From contig NZ_CP145732.1 of the NCBI RefSeq assembly GCF_036884845.1, positions 4,650,001 to 4,714,000 of the forward strand: DNA of 64,000 bases, given 5' to 3'. Below the pieces are notes generated by a model. It saw only the letters and a list, made by a program, of their open reading frames with translations, made no database searches and had not been told where the DNA came from. How positions within the stretch are numbered: the first letter of the stretch is position 1; each line of letters opens with the position of its first letter. Source of the stretch: Pseudomonas sp. MAG733B (lineage in GTDB: Bacteria > Pseudomonadota > Gammaproteobacteria > Pseudomonadales > Pseudomonadaceae). Made by a program: the position numbers and the translations under genes. Positions 9,999 to 60,217 of this stretch are shown piece after piece.

Positions 9999-10017
9999 TT
10001 TTCGTGGAGTGTGCACA

Positions 10018-11472
10018 ATGAAATCCAGTCATCTGTTCCAACCGAAACTCACGGCATTGTCGGCGCTGGTTTTTCTCTCGGCCTGCACTGTCGGTCCTGA
10101 CTTCAAAACACCTGAAGCGAGCCCGTCGCAGCATTACGATCAACAGGCCGAACAACATCTCGGCGGCCAGCAGCGCATCGCGCTTGGCCAGAAAATCAGT
10201 GGGCAATGGTGGTCGGCCTTCCGCTCGCCCAAGCTCGACCAGGTCGTGCGCCGGGCCATCGACGGCAACCTTGAACTGGTCGCTGCCGACGCCACCATTC
10301 GCCAAGCCTCTCAATCCGTAGCGGCGGCGCAAGGTGCGCTGTACCCGCAGGTCGACTTCGGCGCAACGGCGGGTCGTCAACGGGTGCACAACGCCAAGGA
10401 ACCTTCGATCTCCAATTTCTATGCGATCGGACCACGGGTCGGTTTCGACCTGGATGTGTTCGGTGGCAATAAACGGCTGGTCGAACAGCAGCAAGCGTTC
10501 ACCGATCTGCAAACGCATCGCTATGAAGCGGCGTATCTGACCCTGACCGGCGAGGTTGCGAGCCAGTCGTTGTTGATCGCATCGGCGAATGCGCAAATCC
10601 TGGCCGTGGAGAAACTGCTGGCCAACGACGCCAAGAACCTCGAACTGGTGCGCGCGGCGCTGATCAACGGCACGACCACGCAGATTGATGTTTCGCTGGC
10701 CGAGACGCGGCTTGCCCAGGACCGCACGCTGCTGCCGCCATTGGCCCAGCAACGTGATGCGGCCCGCCATGCGCTGTCGATCCTGACCGGCAAAGGCCCG
10801 GCTGACTGGATCGCGCCGGATTTCCACCTCGACGAGTTCGCCTTGCCGTCGAACGTGCCGGTCAGCCTGCCCTCGGAAATGGCCCACGACCGGCCGGACG
10901 TGCGCCAGGCCGAGGCCGAGCTGCACATCGCCAGCGCCGCCGTTGGCGTGGCGACCGCCAATCTCTATCCGCGGGTGACGCTGTCGGCGTCGCTGGCCCA
11001 GGCCGCTTCAGGCAATGGCGGTGCCGCGCTCTGGGGTTTTGCTGCGGGCCTGACGGCACCGATCTTCAACGGCGGAACCCTCAAGGCTGAGCAGCAGGCA
11101 GCCGTCGAAGGCTACAACGCGACGCTCGCCGGCTATCAGCAGACCGTCATCAGTTCGTTCGGCCAGGTCGCGGACACGCTGCAAGCGATCAATCACGACG
11201 CGGAAGAATTCCGTGCCCAGGAAGATGCTCTGCAAGCGGCCGAAACCAGCCTGCGGTTGAACCAGCAAGCCTACGCCCAAGGCGAGAACAGCATCCTCCA
11301 GGTGCTGGAAGCCGAGCGCGCCTATCAACAGTCGTTGCTGGGCCATATCCGCGTGAAGACCGCGCAGTACCTCGACACCGTGCAGCTGTTTGTAGCCCTC
11401 GGCGGCAATTCCATCGGCGTCTTCGAGCAACGGGTTGCCAGCCGCGAAGCCCCACAACGTCCGTATCAGTAG
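10018..11472 (+). CDS. outer-membrane efflux channel lipoprotein (NodT/OprM family)
   Basis: A 484-residue TolC-fold protein with a lipoprotein signal peptide and lipobox LSAC followed by TVGPDFKTP, the usual N-terminus of NodT-family factors. Two OEP repeats of long helices follow (for example LELVAADATIRQASQSVAAAQGALYPQV and LHIASAAVGVATANLYPRVTLSA). It forms the trimeric outer-membrane duct of the pump encoded by the two preceding genes. Start at 10018 follows TGGAG; the earlier GTG in frame overlaps that site. The gene is 19 bases after the pump gene and belongs to the same operon. Confidence 0.9.
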   Translation: MKSSHLFQPKLTALSALVFLSACTVGPDFKTPEASPSQHYDQQAEQHLGGQQRIALGQKISGQWWSAFRSPKLDQVVRRAIDGNLELVAADATIRQASQSVAAAQGALYPQVDFGATAGRQRVHNAKEPSISNFYAIGPRVGFDLDVFGGNKRLVEQQQAFTDLQTHRYEAAYLTLTGEVASQSLLIASANAQILAVEKLLANDAKNLELVRAALINGTTTQIDVSLAETRLAQDRTLLPPLAQQRDAARHALSILTGKGPADWIAPDFHLDEFALPSNVPVSLPSEMAHDRPDVRQAEAELHIASAAVGVATANLYPRVTLSASLAQAASGNGGAALWGFAAGLTAPIFNGGTLKAEQQAAVEGYNATLAGYQQTVISSFGQVADTLQAINHDAEEFRAQEDALQAAETSLRLNQQAYAQGENSILQVLEAERAYQQSLLGHIRVKTAQYLDTVQLFVALGGNSIGVFEQRVASREAPQRPYQ

Positions 11473-51978: not shown

Positions 51979-52428
51979 ATGCGCACGGTTCACGTCCTCC
52001 AAGCTCCACCGGCACCGGTCAACGTCGTTGGCGAAACGATCACGGTCCTTGCCGGCGGCGATATGAGCAAACCCTTCGAAATGCATATCCAGGAAGGCGT
52101 GCAAGGGGGCGGCCCGCCACCGCACTTTCACCCTTGGGACGAGGCGTTCTACGTAGTCGACGGCCAGGTCGAAGTGACCGTGGAAGGCAAATCCACCACC
52201 GTATCGACCGGGGGCTACGTGCATATCCCGGCTGGATCGATTCATGCCTACAAGAACATCAGCACCACCGCGAAGATGATCGGCGTGGTCTCCGATCCTC
52301 GCGGCGGGCAGTTTTTTACGGCGATGGATCAGTTCAAGGTGCCCGAAGACCTACCGCGAATCTTCGAAGTGGCCGAGCGTTTTGGTGTGACGTTTCTGGT
52401 GCCGAAACCGGACTCACCGGCAGGTTGA
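51979..52428 (+). CDS. cupin-domain protein
   Basis: A 149-residue cupin with the metal-binding motif 1 HFHPWDEAFYVVDGQVEVTVEG, including His-x-His and a glutamate, and motif 2 HIPAGSIHAY. It may be a small dioxygenase, isomerase or sensor; substrate unknown. GGAGAG precedes the ATG. It is divergent from ligD and has no obvious functional neighbour. Confidence 0.82.
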   Translation: MRTVHVLQAPPAPVNVVGETITVLAGGDMSKPFEMHIQEGVQGGGPPPHFHPWDEAFYVVDGQVEVTVEGKSTTVSTGGYVHIPAGSIHAYKNISTTAKMIGVVSDPRGGQFFTAMDQFKVPEDLPRIFEVAERFGVTFLVPKPDSPAG

Positions 52429-52443
52429 CCGCGTCATCGTTCA

Positions 52444-52538
52444 TCGCTGGCAAGCCAGCTCCCACAGGGATCGATGGTGGTAACAGATTTTGCGTACAAC
52501 CTCGGTTACCTGTGGGAGCGGGCTTGCCCGCGATGGCG
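52444..52538. repeat. REP/BIME-type inverted repeat pair
   Basis: TGGCAAGCCAGCTCCCACAGG and the inverted CCTGTGGGAGCGGGCTTGCC flank about 40 bases, downstream of the cupin gene and the converging DUF533 gene. Arm order (tail-to-tail) is opposite to that at 14008. Confidence 0.82.
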
Positions 52539-52573
52539 TCCTGGCAGCCGACCTTATCCTCACGGATACATAA

Positions 52574-53311
52574 TCAAACAGCCCCGCCCTTGGCCTGCTG
52601 CTCCAGATGCACCTGCAAATCCGGATCAATACCCAGCGCCGCCGCCAATTCGTCCAGATAGCTGCGCTCGGCATCCTGTTGATCGTCCACCAGCATCACG
52701 CTGGCCAGGTACATTTCGGCAGCCATGCCGGGGTCAGTTGCCGACTGCGCCACATCGGCGGGGTCCAGTGGTTTGGCGACTTCATCATCCAGCCATTGCT
52801 GCAATTGCGGGTCATCGGTGTGCTTGCCGATTTCAGTGCTGATCATGTGTTTCTCTGCCTCATCGATCCGGCCATCGGCCTTGGCCGCCGCTATCAATGC
52901 ACGCAGGATTGCATGGCTATGGTCCTCCAGTTCCGGCCCCGCCAAAAGATCAGCCGTGCGTGGGGTTTCCTGAGGCGCGGTGGCCTGACTGCGCTGCCAC
53001 GCCTGATAAGCCTGAAACGCCATCATCCCCAGAGACGCGAGCGCGGCATAGTTGGTCCCGCCGCCGGAACGCGATTGCGGCGCACCGCCCATCGGTGAAC
53101 CGCCACCGAGCAGGCCGCCAAGCAAGCCGCCCAGCCCGCCCATTCCACCGGCCCCGCCACTGCTGGCGGCGCCACCGCCATCGAGCAGGCCACCGAGCAA
53201 ACCGCCCAGGTCACCGAGACCACCTTGAGCCGACGCCCCACCGCCGCCCTGTTGCGCCATCGAGCCCTGGCCGGCCCGCAGTAATTGTTCGAGCAGATCG
53301 CTGGTGTTCAT
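52574..53311 (-). CDS. DUF533/TerB-like protein with glycine-rich N-terminus
   Basis: A 245-residue protein. The first 85 residues are glycine-rich with repeated LGGLLGGLL units, which may insert in or coat membranes. The C-terminal helical domain (HAILRALIAAAKADGRIDEAEKHMISTEIGKH) is the TerB/DjlA-like fold of DUF533. Function unknown; homologues are found next to many Proteobacterial genes without a fixed partner. The acidic C-terminal domain and low-complexity N-terminus are the notable features. Confidence 0.85.
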   Translation of the reverse strand: MNTSDLLEQLLRAGQGSMAQQGGGGASAQGGLGDLGGLLGGLLDGGGAASSGGAGGMGGLGGLLGGLLGGGSPMGGAPQSRSGGGTNYAALASLGMMAFQAYQAWQRSQATAPQETPRTADLLAGPELEDHSHAILRALIAAAKADGRIDEAEKHMISTEIGKHTDDPQLQQWLDDEVAKPLDPADVAQSATDPGMAAEMYLASVMLVDDQQDAERSYLDELAAALGIDPDLQVHLEQQAKGGAV

Positions 53312-53693
53312 GACGACGTCCTCATCGAAGGAACTGATCCGTCAGGCAACGATAGACCTCGCCGGCAATTGCGCCACCACCGTTTGGCTGATGTAAACGT
53401 GGATGGAAAGGCGCATTCTCGCCCCGGCCAACTGACATAGCTATCAATTAGCCACATAACCGACAAGCGGCAATGTGCTATCGCAAACATTCGCTATACC
53501 AAGCTAATCAGTATCAACTCAGCCAACGAACATGAGGCGCGCAAGCGTATCAGGAGTCGGCAGGATGCTACCCATTCGCTCCTTTATCGTTGGCTGCCCT
53601 TCGGCGCACCCTCAACCTGTCGAGCTTTCTTGTGCTCTGACTCAAATACCCCATATCAACCGGCAAACGGCGGTAACAACGGCGGTCGAAAAA
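53312..53693. other. intergenic region upstream of the unrecognised envelope operon
   Basis: About 380 bases without a supported gene. The downstream lipoprotein frame is open back to 53532, but the extra residues would bury the signal peptide. The A/T-richer part around 53440-53520 (GCTATCAATTAGCC, CGCTATACCAAGC) is the likely promoter zone. Confidence 0.45.
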
Positions 53694-55280
53694 ATGCCGT
53701 GGCCATTCGATGGTCCCGCGTACCGTGTAGCTCGGCGGAAAATCCTGGCCAAATTCTTATTTTGCATCTTTTCGCTCCTTTGCGCTGCAGCCGTGCTCTC
53801 AGGCTGCGCATCCTTGATAAAACCCAACCTGGGACCGGATCCCGAGGTCGCCAAGACTTACGATAAGGCGCCGACCTTGCAGAATGCGATCGCTGTCGGT
53901 ACCTCGATGCGTGAACGCTACAGCGCAAAAGTCGAAGACCAGATTGCCTGGGAACGGGGTCTCGGCATCGGACTGATCGGCGCGGCAACCATCGGTGCCG
54001 ACCTCGCCATGCGTTCGGTGGGTAAAAGCGAAATACTCGGACTGGGACTTGCTGGCGCGGCGCTTTATGCGAGCAGCAACTGGTTGTTCAGCAAGCCACA
54101 ACAACTGATCTATGCCGCAGGCGCGGGAGCCGTGCAGTGTGCACTCGATACGGTGTTGCCTTTACAGGGGCCGTACCAGCAACAAGGAGATCTGCAATCG
54201 AAAAGGGACCAGATCGCCAGAATGGTACTTGAGGTTAAACGCCTGAAGACCAACGTCGCTCCGGGCGCGCCCGGTCAACCACCCACCAGCCTGGTCCGGG
54301 CTGACGCGATGATCGCACGCGCCAATGCCGTCCTGACCGCCGCAGATCAAGCTTTGGCTGTGCTCAAGGGAGCCGCCGGAACATTGCGATCTTCATTGAG
54401 CGCAATTCAGATACAGGTGACCAATGCCTACATCACCAATGCCCCGAGCATGGAGGCGTTGGTTCGCTCCCTGGAAACTTTGATTCCGGCAGCACCGCCA
54501 AAGATCAACACAGGTTCGACAGCGGTCGCTTCAACAGTTGGGGTAATGAGATCAGCGGAAAATGAAGGGCCACTGGTTATAAAAACTGCCGAACTGGAGA
54601 ACCTGATCATTGAAGTCTCGCTGATGATTGATGCTATCAACGCAAGCCCTGCACCGAACACGTTGAAACAATGCAATGTGGATCTCAAGCAGGCCGGTCT
54701 GTCGATGAGATTGACACCTTCCGAACTGTCCATGACACCTGACAGCAAGGGCACCGTAACTGCTTCTGCGTTTGTCTCCGGCAATGTACTGCCATATAGC
54801 TCAGATTGGATTGGCGTACGGCCGCCAAGCGAGCAACTCGACCAGAAAATCGGGCCAACCCCGAGAACCATCACGGTTACGGCAAGCCCCACAGCGAAAG
54901 CCGGGACCTACCAGATACTGGTCCTCGATGAAGCGAAAGCTCAAGAAACCATTCTTCGGGTAACGATCCTGGGCGAGTCCGCTTCTTTGCCGCAAAAACA
55001 GGTGACGCCTGTCACTGCGGTCGACCAGCGAGTGAAAAATCTCCAACAGGATTTGATTGATCTGGGTTACGGCACGGTTGAAGTCAAAGGAAAGAAAGTG
55101 ACAGTGGCCGCTGACGGTCGTATGGGAAGCATCACGACTGAAGCGATGCGGCGGTTCTACATAAATAATGGAAGGGACGATGTTCAGGAAGACGCAATTC
55201 CCAAAGAAAGCAAAAAACTGTTCGACGACGTCGAGCAAATGATCAAAGACCTGAAAACGCGTAGAACGGTGGAAACATGA
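53694..55280 (+). CDS. large lipoprotein with Ig-like and peptidoglycan-binding-like domains
   Basis: A 528-residue protein. The N-terminus is basic (RVARRKILAK), then a hydrophobic stretch and lipobox LSGC (Cys38). After it come a glycine/alanine-rich hairpin that could be membrane-associated (GLGIGLIGAATIGADLAM, LGLGLAGAALYAS) and a helical coiled region (about 180-310). A beta-rich Ig-like domain follows (MRLTPSELSMTPDSKGTVTASAF...AGTYQILVLD), and a C-terminal repeat VKNLQQDLIDLGYG...ADGRMGSITTEAMRRF resembles a peptidoglycan-binding domain. ATG at 53694 is chosen for signal-peptide geometry; no strong ribosome site is seen. It overlaps the next gene by four bases. I do not recognise the whole protein. 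Confidence 0.72.
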   Translation: MPWPFDGPAYRVARRKILAKFLFCIFSLLCAAAVLSGCASLIKPNLGPDPEVAKTYDKAPTLQNAIAVGTSMRERYSAKVEDQIAWERGLGIGLIGAATIGADLAMRSVGKSEILGLGLAGAALYASSNWLFSKPQQLIYAAGAGAVQCALDTVLPLQGPYQQQGDLQSKRDQIARMVLEVKRLKTNVAPGAPGQPPTSLVRADAMIARANAVLTAADQALAVLKGAAGTLRSSLSAIQIQVTNAYITNAPSMEALVRSLETLIPAAPPKINTGSTAVASTVGVMRSAENEGPLVIKTAELENLIIEVSLMIDAINASPAPNTLKQCNVDLKQAGLSMRLTPSELSMTPDSKGTVTASAFVSGNVLPYSSDWIGVRPPSEQLDQKIGPTPRTITVTASPTAKAGTYQILVLDEAKAQETILRVTILGESASLPQKQVTPVTAVDQRVKNLQQDLIDLGYGTVEVKGKKVTVAADGRMGSITTEAMRRFYINNGRDDVQEDAIPKESKKLFDDVEQMIKDLKTRRTVET

Positions 55281-56578
55281 AAGCCCCCAGTTACGTGATA
55301 CGCACATTTTTTGTGCTGCTCGCCGCTGCCGCACCGGCAGCAATACTGTTGTGCTACAGAGACTCCAGCGCGATGGCTGGATTCGACTGGCCGCGTTTGG
55401 TTGCCTGGATCACTTGCCTGGTCGCAATGCTCGTCTTGTTCATATTGGCCGGGCTGAAGATCCGAGGCCGAGTGCTAGGTGTACTGGTCGACGAACGCAA
55501 TCGTTATTCGTTATCCCGCCTGCAGATCTCGCTATGGACGGTACTGGTGCTGGCAACCGTGTACGTGGCGTACCTTGCCAACATTGTCCGAGGGCCCGCC
55601 GACGATGCCCTGGACATTGATCTCGATTACAACTTGATTGCCTTGATGGGTTTCAGTCTTGCGAGTTTCGTGGCTGCACCGATGGCATTGAGCCGCAAAG
55701 CCGAAAAGCCCGGAGGTGAACAGGATCTCGCAACGAATGGCCAGCAATTGCTGGACGCTCAGAACCTTTCAACGCTGCCGTCAGCGACAGGTCAGGTACT
55801 GGTAAAAAACAACCCGAAAGATGCACGGCTTGCAGACCTGATCCGGGGTGAAGACGTCGCCAACGCAATGGTCGTTGATCTGCCTCGCTTGCAAATGCTG
55901 TTGATCACTGCCGTTATTGTCTTCGTGTATGGCGTCACGGTCGGACATAGCTTTGGAACCAGTACCTGGCTGCTGGACCATTTGCCAAAGCTGAACCAAA
56001 CGTTGCTGCTACTGGCGCTGATCAGCCACAGCGGCTATGTCGTCGGAAAGTTGATCCCTACCAGCGCGACATCAACGTCCGTGTTGCCACAACAAACCGC
56101 TCGTGCGCTGACGGCAAGTCAGCGAGCAGCTTCACTGGCGGGTGACTTACAGGCACGACTCAATGCTTGCGCACCGGGTGATCCGCTGTACGACTGGCTT
56201 CGTCGAAGTCTTGCACTTACCCAAGTCACCTCTGCCGAAGCATCGGCGCTGATCGGCCAATTGGACGCACCTGACTTCAATCTCGATGCGATTTCCAGAG
56301 TCGAGGGTCGCATCGATGCGCTGCAAGCAAGCCTGAGCTCACTGCCCACCGGACCAGCAGCTCGCCAAATGCTCGATGCGCCCTCTGAAGAGACCGTGCG
56401 CAAAGTTCAGCAACGCCTGTACAACGTGGGTCATAACGAGGTGACGGTAAACGGCATTGCCGATGCGCCGACCGAACAGGCCATCCGTGCCGAACTCGTG
56501 AAGCAAGGTATCGCCCGCACAGATCTGCATCCACGCCCCTATCGTTATTTTGAAGAACTCGCCCACCTCATCAAATAA
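55277..56578 (+). CDS. polytopic membrane protein with C-terminal peptidoglycan-binding-like repeat
   Basis: A 433-residue protein with about six hydrophobic helices: two near the N-terminus, two around residues 85-140 flanking a short loop, and two around 205-256. The segment LVDERNRYSLSRLQISLWTVLVLATVYVAYL looks family-defining. The C-terminal soluble part ends with VRKVQQRLYNVGHNEVTVNGIADAPTEQAIRAEL, the same kind of repeat as in the preceding lipoprotein. Its ATG overlaps that gene's stop, and the next gene starts 16 bases after its own stop. This suggests an inner-membrane partner of the lipoprotein. Function unknown. Confidence 0.75.
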   Translation: MKAPSYVIRTFFVLLAAAAPAAILLCYRDSSAMAGFDWPRLVAWITCLVAMLVLFILAGLKIRGRVLGVLVDERNRYSLSRLQISLWTVLVLATVYVAYLANIVRGPADDALDIDLDYNLIALMGFSLASFVAAPMALSRKAEKPGGEQDLATNGQQLLDAQNLSTLPSATGQVLVKNNPKDARLADLIRGEDVANAMVVDLPRLQMLLITAVIVFVYGVTVGHSFGTSTWLLDHLPKLNQTLLLLALISHSGYVVGKLIPTSATSTSVLPQQTARALTASQRAASLAGDLQARLNACAPGDPLYDWLRRSLALTQVTSAEASALIGQLDAPDFNLDAISRVEGRIDALQASLSSLPTGPAARQMLDAPSEETVRKVQQRLYNVGHNEVTVNGIADAPTEQAIRAELVKQGIARTDLHPRPYRYFEELAHLIK

Positions 56579-56593
56579 ATCCCGGAGTTCGCC

Positions 56594-57613
56594 ATGAGCC
56601 TGATGCTGCGGATCCACCAGGACCTTTACAAGGATGCGTTCGACTTCCTGTCCAGGGACCTGCCAACCATCAATCAACAAGCACCCAATGTCTGGGAGGC
56701 TTTCCTACAAAATTCGGGGCTCAAATCCGATGAGGCAGTGCAAGCCGTTACGATGAATGGGTTGGCACCGCTGATCTTCGTCGCCAACCTTGGACCGGCG
56801 GTGTTTGGCCAGTTTGATCCACAAATACCAGGTCGTATCGAAATCAGCAGCGAGGTGCTGGATCAGTTTGCGCGCAGCCCGTCAGATACGCTCGCACAGC
56901 AATTCTTGAGGGCAAAGGTGCTGCACGAACTCTGCCACTGGGCCTGCTTCAAAAAACAAATACCGGACAATGACCAATCTGGCGAATCCTTCGAACAAGC
57001 CGCGTTCGGCCGAGAACTGGTGCCCGACTGGACCATCGGCATTGCGGCCACCCACTCGGTGTTCAGCGACCCGCAAGAACGTGCTGACCTGCTGGTGTCG
57101 CTTCTCACGAAACGTACCTTTGCTCCGGGTAGAATCGAGGATCCTGACCACACAGTTTTCGGTGGGGCCAATGTCGCAGAAGCCATGGCGCGCGGTTTCA
57201 GGAACAACAATCCCGGCAACATCCGTGTCAGCCTGACGTCTATCTGGCGCGGCTTGGCAGACCCTGTCGACATGAAAGACTTTCAGCTTCGCGAGAAGAG
57301 TTTCTGCGTATTCCTTGAGCCCGAATGGGGGCTGCGAGCATTGGCGATCCTGCTGCGCAAATACAAGACCAAGTACGGGCTGGATACGCCGCGCAAAATT
57401 ATTTCGCGTTGGGCACCCGCCAGCGACAACAATGATGTAGCCAGTTACGCTCAACAGTTCGCTAAAGCACTGGGTATTGGACCGGATGATTTCGTTGATG
57501 CAAACAGAGACGCTGATCTGGTCAAAATGATGCGCGCCATTGCTCGACACGAAAACGGTGATGCGCCACCGTATAGCGCTATGCAGTATCAAACGGCGCT
57601 CATACTTGTCTGA
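56594..57613 (+). CDS. HELCH metallopeptidase-like domain fused to NNPGNIR phage-virion-like domain
   Basis: A 339-residue protein without signal peptide or membrane helix. The N-terminal half contains a zincin-type motif HELCHW (His111, Glu112, His115) and a downstream GESFEQAAFGREL that could supply the third zinc ligand. The C-terminal half (about 198-330) has GFRNNNPGNIRVS, then IWRG, EPEWGLRALAILLRKY, IISRWAPASDNND and SYAQQFAKALG, the pattern seen in virion-associated proteins of many phages and thought to handle peptidoglycan. GGAG precedes the ATG. As the third gene of a tight operon with two peptidoglycan-binding-like envelope proteins, it may be an exported or lysis-linked effector. 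That is inference; I know of no described family with this fusion. Confidence 0.7.
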   Translation: MSLMLRIHQDLYKDAFDFLSRDLPTINQQAPNVWEAFLQNSGLKSDEAVQAVTMNGLAPLIFVANLGPAVFGQFDPQIPGRIEISSEVLDQFARSPSDTLAQQFLRAKVLHELCHWACFKKQIPDNDQSGESFEQAAFGRELVPDWTIGIAATHSVFSDPQERADLLVSLLTKRTFAPGRIEDPDHTVFGGANVAEAMARGFRNNNPGNIRVSLTSIWRGLADPVDMKDFQLREKSFCVFLEPEWGLRALAILLRKYKTKYGLDTPRKIISRWAPASDNNDVASYAQQFAKALGIGPDDFVDANRDADLVKMMRAIARHENGDAPPYSAMQYQTALILV

Positions 57614-57847
57614 CGAGGTGCGCAAGGCCGACAGCCCTGTTCCAATGAGCATGGCTGAACAAAAGAGGATGTCAGAAACAACGCGCCCCCGGATTTATCC
57701 AGATTTTTCTTACGGCCCAGCTAAGATTCATAGGTGGTGAACCTTATTCCCGGATACCCGGTCGATACCTGCAACCCGAACCGGTTTGCCGCCGCCCGCC
57801 AGATGAGGGCGATGACTGGCTTGCTTCACTTTCTGGAGAACGCCCCC

Positions 57848-58570
57848 GTGATTTCAACTCTACACATTGCCAGGCTCAAAGCATGGGGTGCCCATGGTTT
57901 TACCGCGACCGGCGTGGTCACCGCCTTCCTCGCCACCCTCGCCCTGCTCGATAACCAGCCGACCAGTTGCCTGCTGTGGCTGGGCGTGGCCCTGATCGTC
58001 GACGGGCTGGACGGCGCATTGGCGCGCAAGGTCAATGTGCAGTCGGTGCTGCCGAGTTTCGACGGCTCGATTCTCGATCTGGTGATCGATTACCTGACGT
58101 ATGTATTCATTCCGGCGCTGTTCATCTATCGCTATATCCCGTTGCCGGACTACACGCTGCTGCTGACGGTGTCGCTGATTCTGGTGTCGTCGCTGTTCTG
58201 CTTCTGCAACGTCAACATGAAAAGCAAAGACAACTACTTCCAGGGCTTTCCTGCCGCGTGGAACGTGGTTGCGCTGTGCCTGTACATCATTGCGCCGTCG
58301 CCGTGGATCACTTTTCTCACCGTGATCGGCCTGGCCCTGCTGACGCTGACCCGGATGAAATTCCTGCACCCGTTCCGCGTGCGGCGCTTCATGCCGATCA
58401 ACATTGCCGTGACCGCCATCTGGCTGCTGTGCAGTCTGTCGCTGGTGATCAATCATCCAGTGATCAACCCGCTGGTGATGGGCCTGTGGCTGCTGATGTC
58501 GGCTTACTTTCTGGGGATCTGCTTCTGGCGCACGGCGCTGGAGTGGTTCGACGGATCGCGGGTGAAATAA
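57848..58570 (+). CDS. pcs: phosphatidylcholine synthase
   Basis: A 240-residue inner-membrane CDP-alcohol phosphatidyltransferase. The catalytic motif DG-x2-AR-x12-G-x3-D-x3-D is complete (Asp55, Gly56, Ala59, Arg60, Gly73, Asp77, Asp81). KFLHPFRVRRFMPINI near the C-terminal third is typical of Pcs, which makes phosphatidylcholine directly from CDP-diacylglycerol and choline. I choose the GTG at 57848, which follows GGAG and gives the expected N-terminus (MISTLHIARLKAWG); an ATG at 57803 is the alternative. It uses choline, which needs import, so the BCCT carrier at 14152 is one conceivable supplier but is far away. Confidence 0.9.
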   Translation: MISTLHIARLKAWGAHGFTATGVVTAFLATLALLDNQPTSCLLWLGVALIVDGLDGALARKVNVQSVLPSFDGSILDLVIDYLTYVFIPALFIYRYIPLPDYTLLLTVSLILVSSLFCFCNVNMKSKDNYFQGFPAAWNVVALCLYIIAPSPWITFLTVIGLALLTLTRMKFLHPFRVRRFMPINIAVTAIWLLCSLSLVINHPVINPLVMGLWLLMSAYFLGICFWRTALEWFDGSRVK

Positions 58571-58574
58571 CGCC

Positions 58575-58961
58575 ATGCCTGTCCATATCGTGCGCCTCGG
58601 CTCACCGCGCCTGCCCGGCGAAGGTTTGCGCCTGGGCACCGTGCGTCGCCCACCTCGTGGCGTACCGAAAGCCGAGTTCGCCAGTCGGGATTTCTACGAT
58701 GTGTGGCAACCGCTGCTGTCCCCGAGCCAGGAGTTGGTGCACGAAGCCCAACACGCTGAAGACGAAAAAGCCTGGAACGCGTTCAAGCGCAAGTTCAAGG
58801 CCGAAATGAACCAACCCGCCGCCAGTCAGTTGCTCGATCTGCTGGCCGCCCTCTCGCATGACACTTCGTTGGCTGTTGGCTGTTACTGCGAAGAAGAAGC
58901 GCATTGTCATCGCTCGGTGTTGCGTGAATTGCTGGCGGCGCGGGGTGCGAAAGTTACCTGA
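58575..58961 (+). CDS. DUF488 family protein
   Basis: A 128-residue protein with the DUF488 signature: IVRLGSPRLPGEGLRLGTVRRPPRGV at the start and the cysteine/histidine motif GCYCEEEAHCHRSVLRELL near residue 103. It begins four bases after the pcs stop, so it is co-transcribed, but no functional tie is known. The family has no firm biochemical role. Confidence 0.88.
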   Translation: MPVHIVRLGSPRLPGEGLRLGTVRRPPRGVPKAEFASRDFYDVWQPLLSPSQELVHEAQHAEDEKAWNAFKRKFKAEMNQPAASQLLDLLAALSHDTSLAVGCYCEEEAHCHRSVLRELLAARGAKVT

Positions 58962-58982
58962 TCACCAACAAACACCATAAAT

Positions 58983-59075
58983 CCTGCGGGAGCGGGCTTG
59001 CCCGCGATAGCGATCATCCAGACAAAGATAAAGTGGCTGGCAGACCGTCATCGCGGGCAAGCCCGCTCCCACAGG
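58983..59075. repeat. REP/BIME-type inverted repeat pair
   Basis: CCTGCGGGAGCGGGCTTGCC and the inverted GGGCAAGCCCGCTCCCACAGG flank about 50 bases between converging genes. Confidence 0.85.
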
Positions 59076-59088
59076 GATCTATGTCGAT

Positions 59089-59901
59089 TCAACGCCGTGT
59101 GATCACCACCTCCAGATACTCACTCGGCACCACCAGCGACTTGTCGCCCGCCCGGTTCGAACGGTTGATCAGATCAGCCAGGTCATTTTCCAGGGCCAGG
59201 GCGCTTTCCGGTGGCAGCGCCCCGAATGCCTTGTGCACCGGGCCGTACCAGGTGCGGAAGGTGTCAATGAAATGCGCTGTGGAGCGATACCGGAAATTGA
59301 AGGTCTTGCGCGTTACCTGAACCAGGAAGTTTCGCTCATCGAACTGCATGTGCAACCAGGCTTCGGTGCCCCACTGCGAGGGCGGTTGCGCGCCGGGTGG
59401 TGGTGGCATGTGCCGGCCGAGGGTCTTGAACATCTGGCCGACGAAACCTTCCGGTGTCCAGTTGGCCAGGCCGATCCGGCCGCCCGGCCGACAGACCCGC
59501 GCCAGCTCCGCTGCAGCCTTGGGCTGGTCCGGGGTGAACATTACGCCGAAAGTCGAAAGCACGGCGTCGAAACTGGCATCGTCAAAAGGCAGCGCTTCGG
59601 CATCGGCCACTTGAAAAGTCACGTTGAGGCGCTCTGCCCTCGCCCGGTCTTCGCCGCGTTCGAGCAGTGCGGCCACATAGTCGGTCGAGGTCACCAGGCA
59701 ACCCCGGCGGGCAGCGGCCAGTGTGGCATTGCCGTTGCCGGCGGCGACGTCCAGCACTTGCTCATCGCACAGCAGGTCGCAGGCTTCGGCCAGTTGCTCG
59801 CCGACAATCTGCAAGGTCGTGCCGATCACGGCATAGTCGCCACTGGCCCAAGCGGCCATCTGACGGTTTTTCAAGGCAGTAAGATCAATGGGTGTACTCA
59901 T
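59089..59901 (-). CDS. class I SAM-dependent methyltransferase
   Basis: A 270-residue methyltransferase with motif I VLDVAAGNGNATLAAARRG, post-I TSTDYV and motif III-like DAVLSTFGVMFTPDQPKAAAELARVCRPGGRIGLANWTPEG, as in UbiE/COQ5-type enzymes that modify small molecules. The substrate is unknown. It is followed upstream on the same strand by the DUF4242 gene. Confidence 0.88.
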   Translation of the reverse strand: MSTPIDLTALKNRQMAAWASGDYAVIGTTLQIVGEQLAEACDLLCDEQVLDVAAGNGNATLAAARRGCLVTSTDYVAALLERGEDRARAERLNVTFQVADAEALPFDDASFDAVLSTFGVMFTPDQPKAAAELARVCRPGGRIGLANWTPEGFVGQMFKTLGRHMPPPPGAQPPSQWGTEAWLHMQFDERNFLVQVTRKTFNFRYRSTAHFIDTFRTWYGPVHKAFGALPPESALALENDLADLINRSNRAGDKSLVVPSEYLEVVITRR

Positions 59902-59947
59902 GGAGACGATCTCTGGGTTGAAACACGGATCAGTTACCGGCGCACAC

Positions 59948-60217
59948 TTACTCCGCCGTGGTGGGATCGATGATGTTCATGACCTGGGAGACACGATTGG
60001 CCGGGAAACCACTCAGCCGGGCATGTTCCTGGATCTGTTCTTCGCTTGGCGCGATGTACACGCAGTAGAGCTTGTCACCGGTGACATAACTCTGCAGCCA
60101 CTGCACTTCCGGCAAATCGCGCAACGTCCTGCAGGACTTTTGCGAAGCGGCTTTCAAATCCCTTTCTGACAGTGTTCCAGCACCTGGAATCTCGCGTTCT
60201 ATGACGAACTTAGGCAT
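59948..60217 (-). CDS. DUF4242 small protein
   Basis: An 89-residue ferredoxin-like protein (MPKFVIEREIPGAGTLSERDLKAASQKSC...VQWLQSYVTGDKLYCVYIAPSEEQIQEHARLSGFP), matching the DUF4242/SCO4226-like family, one member of which binds nickel. It is 46 bases upstream of the methyltransferase gene and divergent from the AraC regulator. Confidence 0.85.
   Translation of the reverse strand: MPKFVIEREIPGAGTLSERDLKAASQKSCRTLRDLPEVQWLQSYVTGDKLYCVYIAPSEEQIQEHARLSGFPANRVSQVMNIIDPTTAE

What the first reader, a model, noticed from the sequence alone, without database searches (positions are those of the whole stretch)
53694..57613. Unrecognised three-gene envelope operon with two peptidoglycan-binding-like proteins and a metallopeptidase/phage-like fusion
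The genes overlap or are 16 bases apart. A lipoprotein and a six-helix membrane protein each end in a similar repeat that looks like a peptidoglycan-binding fold, so both may hold the cell wall from opposite membranes. The third gene encodes a cytoplasm-style protein with a zinc motif and a phage-virion-like half. Such a set could be an envelope-spanning device, a toxin-release system or a defence module. I can match none of the three to a described system, and the base composition is somewhat lower in GC than the neighbours.
Basis: partly seen in the sequence, partly recalled or inferred. Interest (0 to 1): 0.78.

Follow-up and report, generated by a model that had tools for sequence, protein, structure and literature searches.

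The report
Three-gene cell-wall-cutting envelope operon
A bacterium, probably a Pseudomonas, carries a compact and rare three-gene set that joins a two-headed enzyme, half of it like a phage wall-cutting enzyme, to a membrane protein and a lipoprotein; it looks like an undescribed kit for breaching a bacterial envelope, but nothing about its function has been tested.

Summary
Genes A (53694-55280, lipoprotein), B (55277-56578, six membrane helices) and C (56594-57613, no hydrophobic stretch) form a tight operon on a 4.3-kb insert that is missing from the same spot in 5 of 37 other genomes searched. The tails of A and B are homologous PG_binding_1-like domains. C is not a virion part: its first half is a Tox-MPTase3 zinc metallopeptidase, its second half an Enc34-type endolysin glycosidase, and both keep their active-site residues. 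Relatives of C add an M23 or an M15-like peptidase. B and C distances correlate (Mantel r 0.90, 15 pairs). B's membrane core is an unnamed family that reaches archaea and several bacterial phyla. Best reading (0.4): an envelope-breaching cassette that works like a lysis/T10SS module, with C as endolysin, B as membrane gate and A as outer-membrane partner. It is not a T10SS member: no small holin, no spanin pair. The claim that B grips the wall is doubtful, because charge bias places B's tail in the cytoplasm.

The parts
53390..57691 (.). About 4.3-kb insert holding only the three genes, between a DUF533 gene (52574-53311, -) and a CDP-alcohol phosphatidyltransferase gene (57734-58570, +)
   Evidence: In 5 of 37 other genomes searched the two flanks lie 20-160 bp apart; flank families by Pfam; GC 0.552 against 0.599; no direct repeat over 9 bp at the ends
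53694..55280 (+). Gene A: lipoprotein of 528 aa with a glycine-rich hydrophobic stretch, long helices, an Ig-like sandwich and a PG_binding_1-like tail (an in-frame start also exists at 53532)
53694..53807 (+). Gene A signal peptide and lipobox (LSGC, cysteine 38, next residue Ala; that this fits outer-membrane sorting is recalled)
54702..54968 (+). Gene A Ig-like beta sandwich, residues 337-425
55023..55277 (+). Gene A PG_binding_1-like tail, residues 444-528
   Evidence: 20.1 bits, under the cut-off; 6 of 19 relatives; homologous to the B tail
55277..56578 (+). Gene B: six-helix membrane protein of 433 aa
55295..56056 (+). Gene B membrane core, residues 7-260, with motifs SLSRLQxxLWT, DxxxGxxxxN, QxxxxT, SHxGYxxxK
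   Evidence: alignment of 54 sequences, archaea included
56372..56575 (+). Gene B PG_binding_1-like tail, residues 366-433
56594..57613 (+). Gene C: two-domain hydrolase of 339 aa without a hydrophobic stretch
56627..57010 (+). Tox-MPTase3 (PF15639) zinc metallopeptidase domain, residues 12-139; HExxH at 56924-56938, probable third ligand E134 at 56993-56995
   Evidence: 46.0 bits, cut-off 25; residue counts
57179..57598 (+). Enc34/PHA02564-type endolysin glycosidase domain, residues 196-335; catalytic Glu320 at 57551-57553
   Evidence: phrog_873 4.6e-43; 7q47_A 6.5e-20, by profile 1.8e-33; residues

Best explanation
A-B-C is a horizontally acquired, bacterial-encoded envelope-breaching cassette. 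Shown by sequence: C has two domains with intact active-site residues, a zinc metallopeptidase and an endolysin-type peptidoglycan glycosidase, and no hydrophobic stretch; B is a polytopic membrane protein of a widespread unnamed family; A is a lipoprotein with a peptidoglycan-binding-like tail; the genes are linked and their distances correlate. Inferred: on a signal, B lets C cross or disrupts the inner membrane, C cuts glycan and a peptide or protein target in the wall, and A, attached to the outer membrane and the wall, lets the outer membrane be passed or ruptured. The outcome is self-lysis of the producer or release of its contents. It would work like a phage lysis cassette or T10SS but is built from other membrane parts.
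For: C's second half keeps the residues tied to catalysis in Enc34 endolysin, PDB 7Q47: Glu131 = E320 35/35, Trp79 = W273 34/35, Tyr95 = Y285 35/35. No hydrophobic stretch in 35 of 35 aligned C sequences (hydropathy only, no signal-peptide predictor), as expected of an endolysin that needs a membrane partner. In phage M4Lys, same family, removing the attached membrane segment abolished lysis in E. coli, and Sec was not needed (PMC7143992, abstract and passages). Relatives of C add wall peptidases: M23 in P0112 and, by my reading, an M15-like stretch in P0058. P0112's glycosidase lies outside the single C group (100/97), so this pairing may have arisen twice (long branch). In one other genome a B relative sits beside an Amidase_2 gene that by eye has no signal, with a lipoprotein two genes on. 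Linkage: 15 of 26 full or near-full B hits have an A or C partner by locus or equal contig length. B-C Mantel r 0.90, 0 of 9999 permutations as high.
Against: B matches no holin family and is far larger than a usual holin. No spanin-like pair among ORFs of 40 aa or more in the insert, by eye. B's core also occurs alone: in 4 Pseudomonas loci with neither A nor C, in Methanosarcinales archaea, and in many loci with no wall enzyme seen nearby, so its basic job is not wall lysis. The B relative beside the amidase has no PG-binding tail. Loop charges put the B tail in the cytoplasm. No relative of A or B was found in phage records by tblastn or in viral contigs by pattern scan, so a phage origin holds for C's second half only. 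The Mantel test does not exclude plain common descent of linked genes.
Confidence: 0.4

Rival explanations
1. C is an exported antibacterial effector (metallopeptidase toxin plus wall glycosidase), and A, a periplasmic lipoprotein, and/or B are its immunity or export partners.
For: Tox-MPTase3 was described as a toxin domain of polymorphic toxins, listed with T2SS and PVC delivery (PMC3482391, passages). One eCIS_core match lies elsewhere in the window's genome. A lipoprotein beside a wall hydrolase recalls immunity lipoproteins of secreted wall hydrolases (recalled). The trio is rare and sits on an insert.
Against: No trafficking domain on C: Tox-MPTase3 starts at residue 12. No contractile-injection tube match in the window's genome (PF06841). 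Other secretion systems of that genome were not searched. A and B are larger and more complex than usual immunity proteins (recalled).
Confidence: 0.25
2. The trio is an envelope-maintenance or wall-remodelling unit: A and B anchor to peptidoglycan from the two membranes and C trims the wall between them.
For: Two homologous PG-binding-like tails; Ig-like domain plus PG-binding-like tail in a lipoprotein.
Against: C has no hydrophobic export signal. Loop charges place B's tail inside. Rarity, full-length C in 1 of 398 same-genus genomes, argues against housekeeping.
Confidence: 0.15
3. It is a suicide defence system in which B senses infection and C kills the infected cell.
For: Self-lysing anatomy; some distant B relatives have nearby SIR2-like (L018), CHAT plus AAA (L092), patatin (L114), S8 (L113) or C25 (L011) genes.
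Against: No PADLOC match for A, B or C; nine flanking genes give only partial matches in two. Such neighbours were seen in a minority of the B loci read by eye, with no background test.
Confidence: 0.12

Closest known systems
Type 10 secretion system / phage lysis cassette (holin, endolysin, spanins; PMC10847048, passages)
   Same: Endolysin-type enzyme without hydrophobic signal, a membrane protein and a lipoprotein encoded together in a bacterial chromosome
   Different: No small holin and no Rz/Rz1-like pair; B is a 6-helix protein of an unrelated, widespread family; C carries an added metallopeptidase
Enc34-type (PHA02564) phage endolysins: Enc34 ORF39 (PMC8943055, abstract and passages) and M4Lys (PMC7143992, abstract and passages)
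   Same: C's second half: same family, same three active-site residues
   Different: These two phage enzymes carry their own C-terminal membrane segment; C has none and is fused to Tox-MPTase3; the C domains form their own group
Tox-MPTase3 polymorphic-toxin peptidase (PMC3482391, passages)
   Same: C's first half: family score above cut-off, HExxH and F[DE] motifs
   Different: At the N-terminus, without RHS or PVC-type delivery parts, fused to a wall glycosidase
PG_binding_1 tails such as that of lytic transglycosylase SltB3
   Same: Tail domain of B (above cut-off) and A (below it)
   Different: Carried by a polytopic membrane protein and a lipoprotein with no enzyme domain found

Membership tests
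T10SS / lysis cassette | Endolysin-type enzyme without a Sec signal | tested here: met
   Domain and active-site residues; no hydrophobic stretch in 35 of 35 (no signal-peptide predictor run)
T10SS / lysis cassette | Small holin with few helices (definition recalled) | tested here: not met
   B is 433 aa with six helices and matches no PHROG or Pfam holin
T10SS / lysis cassette | Inner/outer spanin pair | tested here: not met
   No Rz/Rz1-like pair, by eye, among ORFs of 40 aa or more in the insert; A is a 528-aa lipoprotein
T10SS / lysis cassette | Released cargo | tested here: inconclusive
   No cargo gene in the insert, but cargo need not be adjacent; a PF04185 phosphoesterase lies beside the trio in Dokdonella and beside the B relative in L111
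T10SS / lysis cassette | Causes lysis or release | not testable with these tools
   -
PHA02564 endolysin glycosidase | Catalytic Glu with conserved Trp and Tyr | tested here: met
   35/35, 34/35, 35/35, mapped
Tox-MPTase3 (PF15639) | Score above family cut-off with zinc site | tested here: met
   46.0 against 25 bits; HExxH and E134
Polymorphic / eCIS-delivered toxin | Trafficking or RHS domain ahead of the toxin domain | tested here: not met
   Toxin-type domain starts at residue 12
Polymorphic / eCIS-delivered toxin | eCIS tube gene in the same genome | tested here: not met
   PF06841: 0 matches in G000; one eCIS_core match exists elsewhere in it
PG_binding_1 (PF01471) | Score above cut-off | tested here: inconclusive
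   B 25.1 above, A 20.1 below the cut-off of 23
Anti-phage defence system | Match to a known defence model | tested here: not met
   PADLOC: none for A, B, C

The most novel reading that the evidence does not exclude
The trio is the first seen form of a non-phage, holin-free envelope-breaching machine. A widespread, unnamed six-helix membrane family, present in archaea and several bacterial phyla, serves as a gate that has been coupled, by adding a PG-binding-like tail and a lipoprotein partner, to interchangeable wall hydrolases that lack an export signal.
Probability: 0.27. Interest if true: 0.78.

Novelty: new variant of a known kind. Interest (0 to 1): 0.52.

Why it matters
If the reading is right, bacteria have built lysis or release modules from membrane parts other than phage holins and spanins, and a large unnamed membrane family gets a first testable role. 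It also places a 'toxin' metallopeptidase family in fusion with wall hydrolases, perhaps more than once, which suggests that this peptidase acts on the cell wall or on wall proteins.

Tried and rejected
Chi-like phage endolysins seemed to match most of C (54-335) in one tblastn piece. Reading one such locus showed that the piece runs over a stop between a spanin-like gene and the endolysin, with no HExxH, so only the glycosidase half is shared there. eCIS link: a distant B relative (L021) lies beside tube- and sheath-like genes (my reading), but tube genes were found in 3 of 11 B-bearing genomes and not in the window's; dropped. Foldseek gave no match at E<=0.001 for the whole models of B or A; in the second look the listed rows test mainly B 265-360 and A 335-429, so the membrane core was barely tested and nothing follows for it. 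A lipobox scan around 34 B loci was too strict: it missed the A genes of L002 and L006, so I use none of its counts. The lipoproteins near B in L019 and L111 resemble A only weakly (7.8 and 2.6 bits, against five sequences). The promoter scan found none and the terminator scan no more than shuffles roughly allow; Rfam found none in 52000-60000. NCBIfam gave nothing above cut-off. Paper searches: PF15639 / 'metallopeptidase toxin 3' found 0, lysis-cassette wording 0, PHA02564 two phage papers, Tox-MPTase3 one, Enc34 11, of which 5 were listed, holin/spanin/T10SS 410, of which 10 were listed. No listed paper describes the trio as far as titles and abstracts show; only these searches stand behind that.

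Limits. Contig pairing of A, B and C rests partly on equal 'longest contig' lengths, an inference; the 11 of 26 B hits without a partner are not shown to lack one. Searches scored only the candidates sharing most words. Whole-genome searches scored only a few candidates per genome (4-5). Gene models in fetched loci are mechanical ORFs. Models of A (mean pLDDT 64) and B (75) are moderate. In one search one row was dropped for a short domain, 136 columns served 106 rows, and the bootstrap had not settled. The distant-B alignment left out L012, L013, L032, L092 and L114. The genus name Pseudomonas for the window and the order name Burkholderiales for G1450 are inferences; no call names these genomes.

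They confirmed 7Q47 as Enc34 and the flank families, added tblastn searches in phage records for A and B, and led me to drop 'no cargo' from the reasons against T10SS membership.
Full report
Observation. The window's genome (6.65 Mb, one contig; probably Pseudomonas, which no call names) carries three adjacent + strand genes. A (53694-55280) overlaps B (55277-56578) by 4 bases, and C (56594-57613) starts 15 bases after B. GC is 0.552 in the insert against 0.599 in the rest of the window, and 9 of 299 windows of that size are as low.

Insert. A DNA search of 38 genomes (37 besides the window's own) with 52500-58600 found matches in 25, own included. In 5 of the 37 (G002, G005, G011, G019, G021) the two flanking genes lie 20-160 bp apart, where the window has about 4.3 kb; the other matching genomes were not examined further. 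The flanks are a DUF533 gene and a CDP-alcohol phosphatidyltransferase gene. No direct repeat longer than 9 bp brackets the insert, no tRNA gene was found in the window and I saw no transposase-like ORF in the insert.

Rarity. C profile, genus: 69 of 398 genomes match at E<=1e-20. The own genome is the only full-length match; the 68 others start at model position 144 or later, after the metallopeptidase half. Phylum: 20 of 398 at E<=1e-10, again only the own genome full length; two others (G690, G715) match only the metallopeptidase half. B profile: 3 of 398 genomes of the phylum, 2 of 369 of the class, 2 of 300 of the order of the Accumulibacter genome, 1 of 28 of its genus and 1 of 4 of the genus of G1450; each count includes the centre genome itself. 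These searches scored few candidates per genome in the large sets.

Gene C. Pfam: Tox-MPTase3 at 12-139, 46 bits, cut-off 25. PHROGs: endolysin family phrog_873 at 196-335, 4.6e-43. PDB: 7q47_A, 6.5e-20 by sequence, 1.8e-33 by profile. 7Q47 is the Enc34 endolysin domain; the paper (PMC8943055, abstract and passages) names catalytic Glu131 and conserved Trp79 and Tyr95. Mapped by me through the alignment (chain number minus one) these are E320, W273 and Y285, present in 35/35, 34/35 and 35/35 C sequences. The Enc34 authors conclude on a beta-N-acetylglucosaminidase; the M4Lys paper reports glycosidase and infers an endopeptidase activity, so the bond cut is not settled. The zinc residues H111, E112, H115 and E134 are kept in 35, 35, 34 and 35 of 35. 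None of 35 has a hydrophobic stretch. The glycosidase halves of the 35 C proteins form one group (support 100/97) against 70 other endolysin-type domains; P0112, with Tox-MPTase3, M23 and glycosidase, lies outside it on a long branch. P0058 adds a C-terminal stretch that I read as M15-like from HxxxxxxD and HxE; Pfam did not call it. The company of wall hydrolases favours a wall or wall-protein target for the metallopeptidase.

Gene B. Six hydrophobic segments in the window's protein, weak signs of an internal duplication (hhalign probability 68.8%), a helical bundle at about 265-360 and a PG_binding_1-like tail. The membrane core matches no Pfam, PHROG or NCBIfam family above cut-off. A scan of genome contigs with the B alignment returned 31 loci, from Accumulibacter, Pseudomonas and Dokdonella to Methanosarcinales, Anaerolineales, Planctomycetota, Paenibacillus and Lentzea. 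In an alignment of 54 sequences W44, Q83, W87, Q206, T211, Y218, Y254 and K258 are present in all. None of the 25 distant ones in it has more than 58 residues after the last helix, so in this sample the PG-binding-like tail goes with the trio form. In 4 Pseudomonas loci (L003-L005, L007) a short B without the tail stands without A or C. Loop charges (K+R against D+E) are higher at the N-terminus and in loop 2-3 than in loops 1-2, 3-4 and 5-6 in the 25 near-full relatives, and higher in loop 2-3 in the 25 distant ones. This predicts both ends in the cytoplasm. The last helix is the weakest, and homology of the tail with A's tail points the other way; I leave it open.

Linkage. The trio is read directly in the window, L002 (Accumulibacter) and L006 (Dokdonella). 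Among 26 full or near-full B hits, 15 have an A or C partner by locus or by equal longest-contig length; none of the 7 short B hits does. Linked genes that simply share descent would give the same.

Wider context. In Dokdonella a PF04185 phosphoesterase lies just upstream of the trio. Other B relatives lie near S8, C25, CHAT/AAA, patatin or SIR2-like genes, and many lie near nothing of the kind. I ran no background test, so this is a lead only.

Mechanism. Shown by sequence: intact active-site residues, no hydrophobic export signal, linkage. Inferred: C reaches the wall through or with B, and A deals with the outer membrane. In M4Lys the same glycosidase domain needs its attached membrane segment to lyse E. 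coli, without Sec; B could supply such a part in trans. T10SS cassettes show that bacteria use endolysin modules for lytic release (PMC10847048, passages). The trio fails T10SS membership on holin and spanins, so it may work like one but is not one.

Noticed in passing
   Followed up: partly
L092 1-16768 and L114 4879-16001: B relatives with an extra N-terminal domain (a separate gene in L092) beside a giant uncharacterised protein that looks homologous by eye in both, with CHAT and ATPase genes in one and a patatin in the other; looks like a separate conflict-type module.
   Followed up: partly
L021 5787-10705: B relative with an N-terminal extension next to contractile-injection tube- and sheath-like genes.
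   Followed up: partly
L003, L004, L005, L007 about 10000-10900: Pseudomonas loci (two of them P. protegens) with a lone short B gene without A or C; in L003 and L004 it lies between a phosphatase-like gene and an HxlR-like regulator gene (names by eye).
   Followed up: no
window about 52507-52560: Short sequence that recurs at several places in this and related genomes, probably a REP-type repeat.
   Followed up: no
P0112: Single protein joining Tox-MPTase3, an M23 peptidase and an Enc34-type glycosidase: three hydrolase domains in one chain.
   Followed up: partly
   Followed up: no
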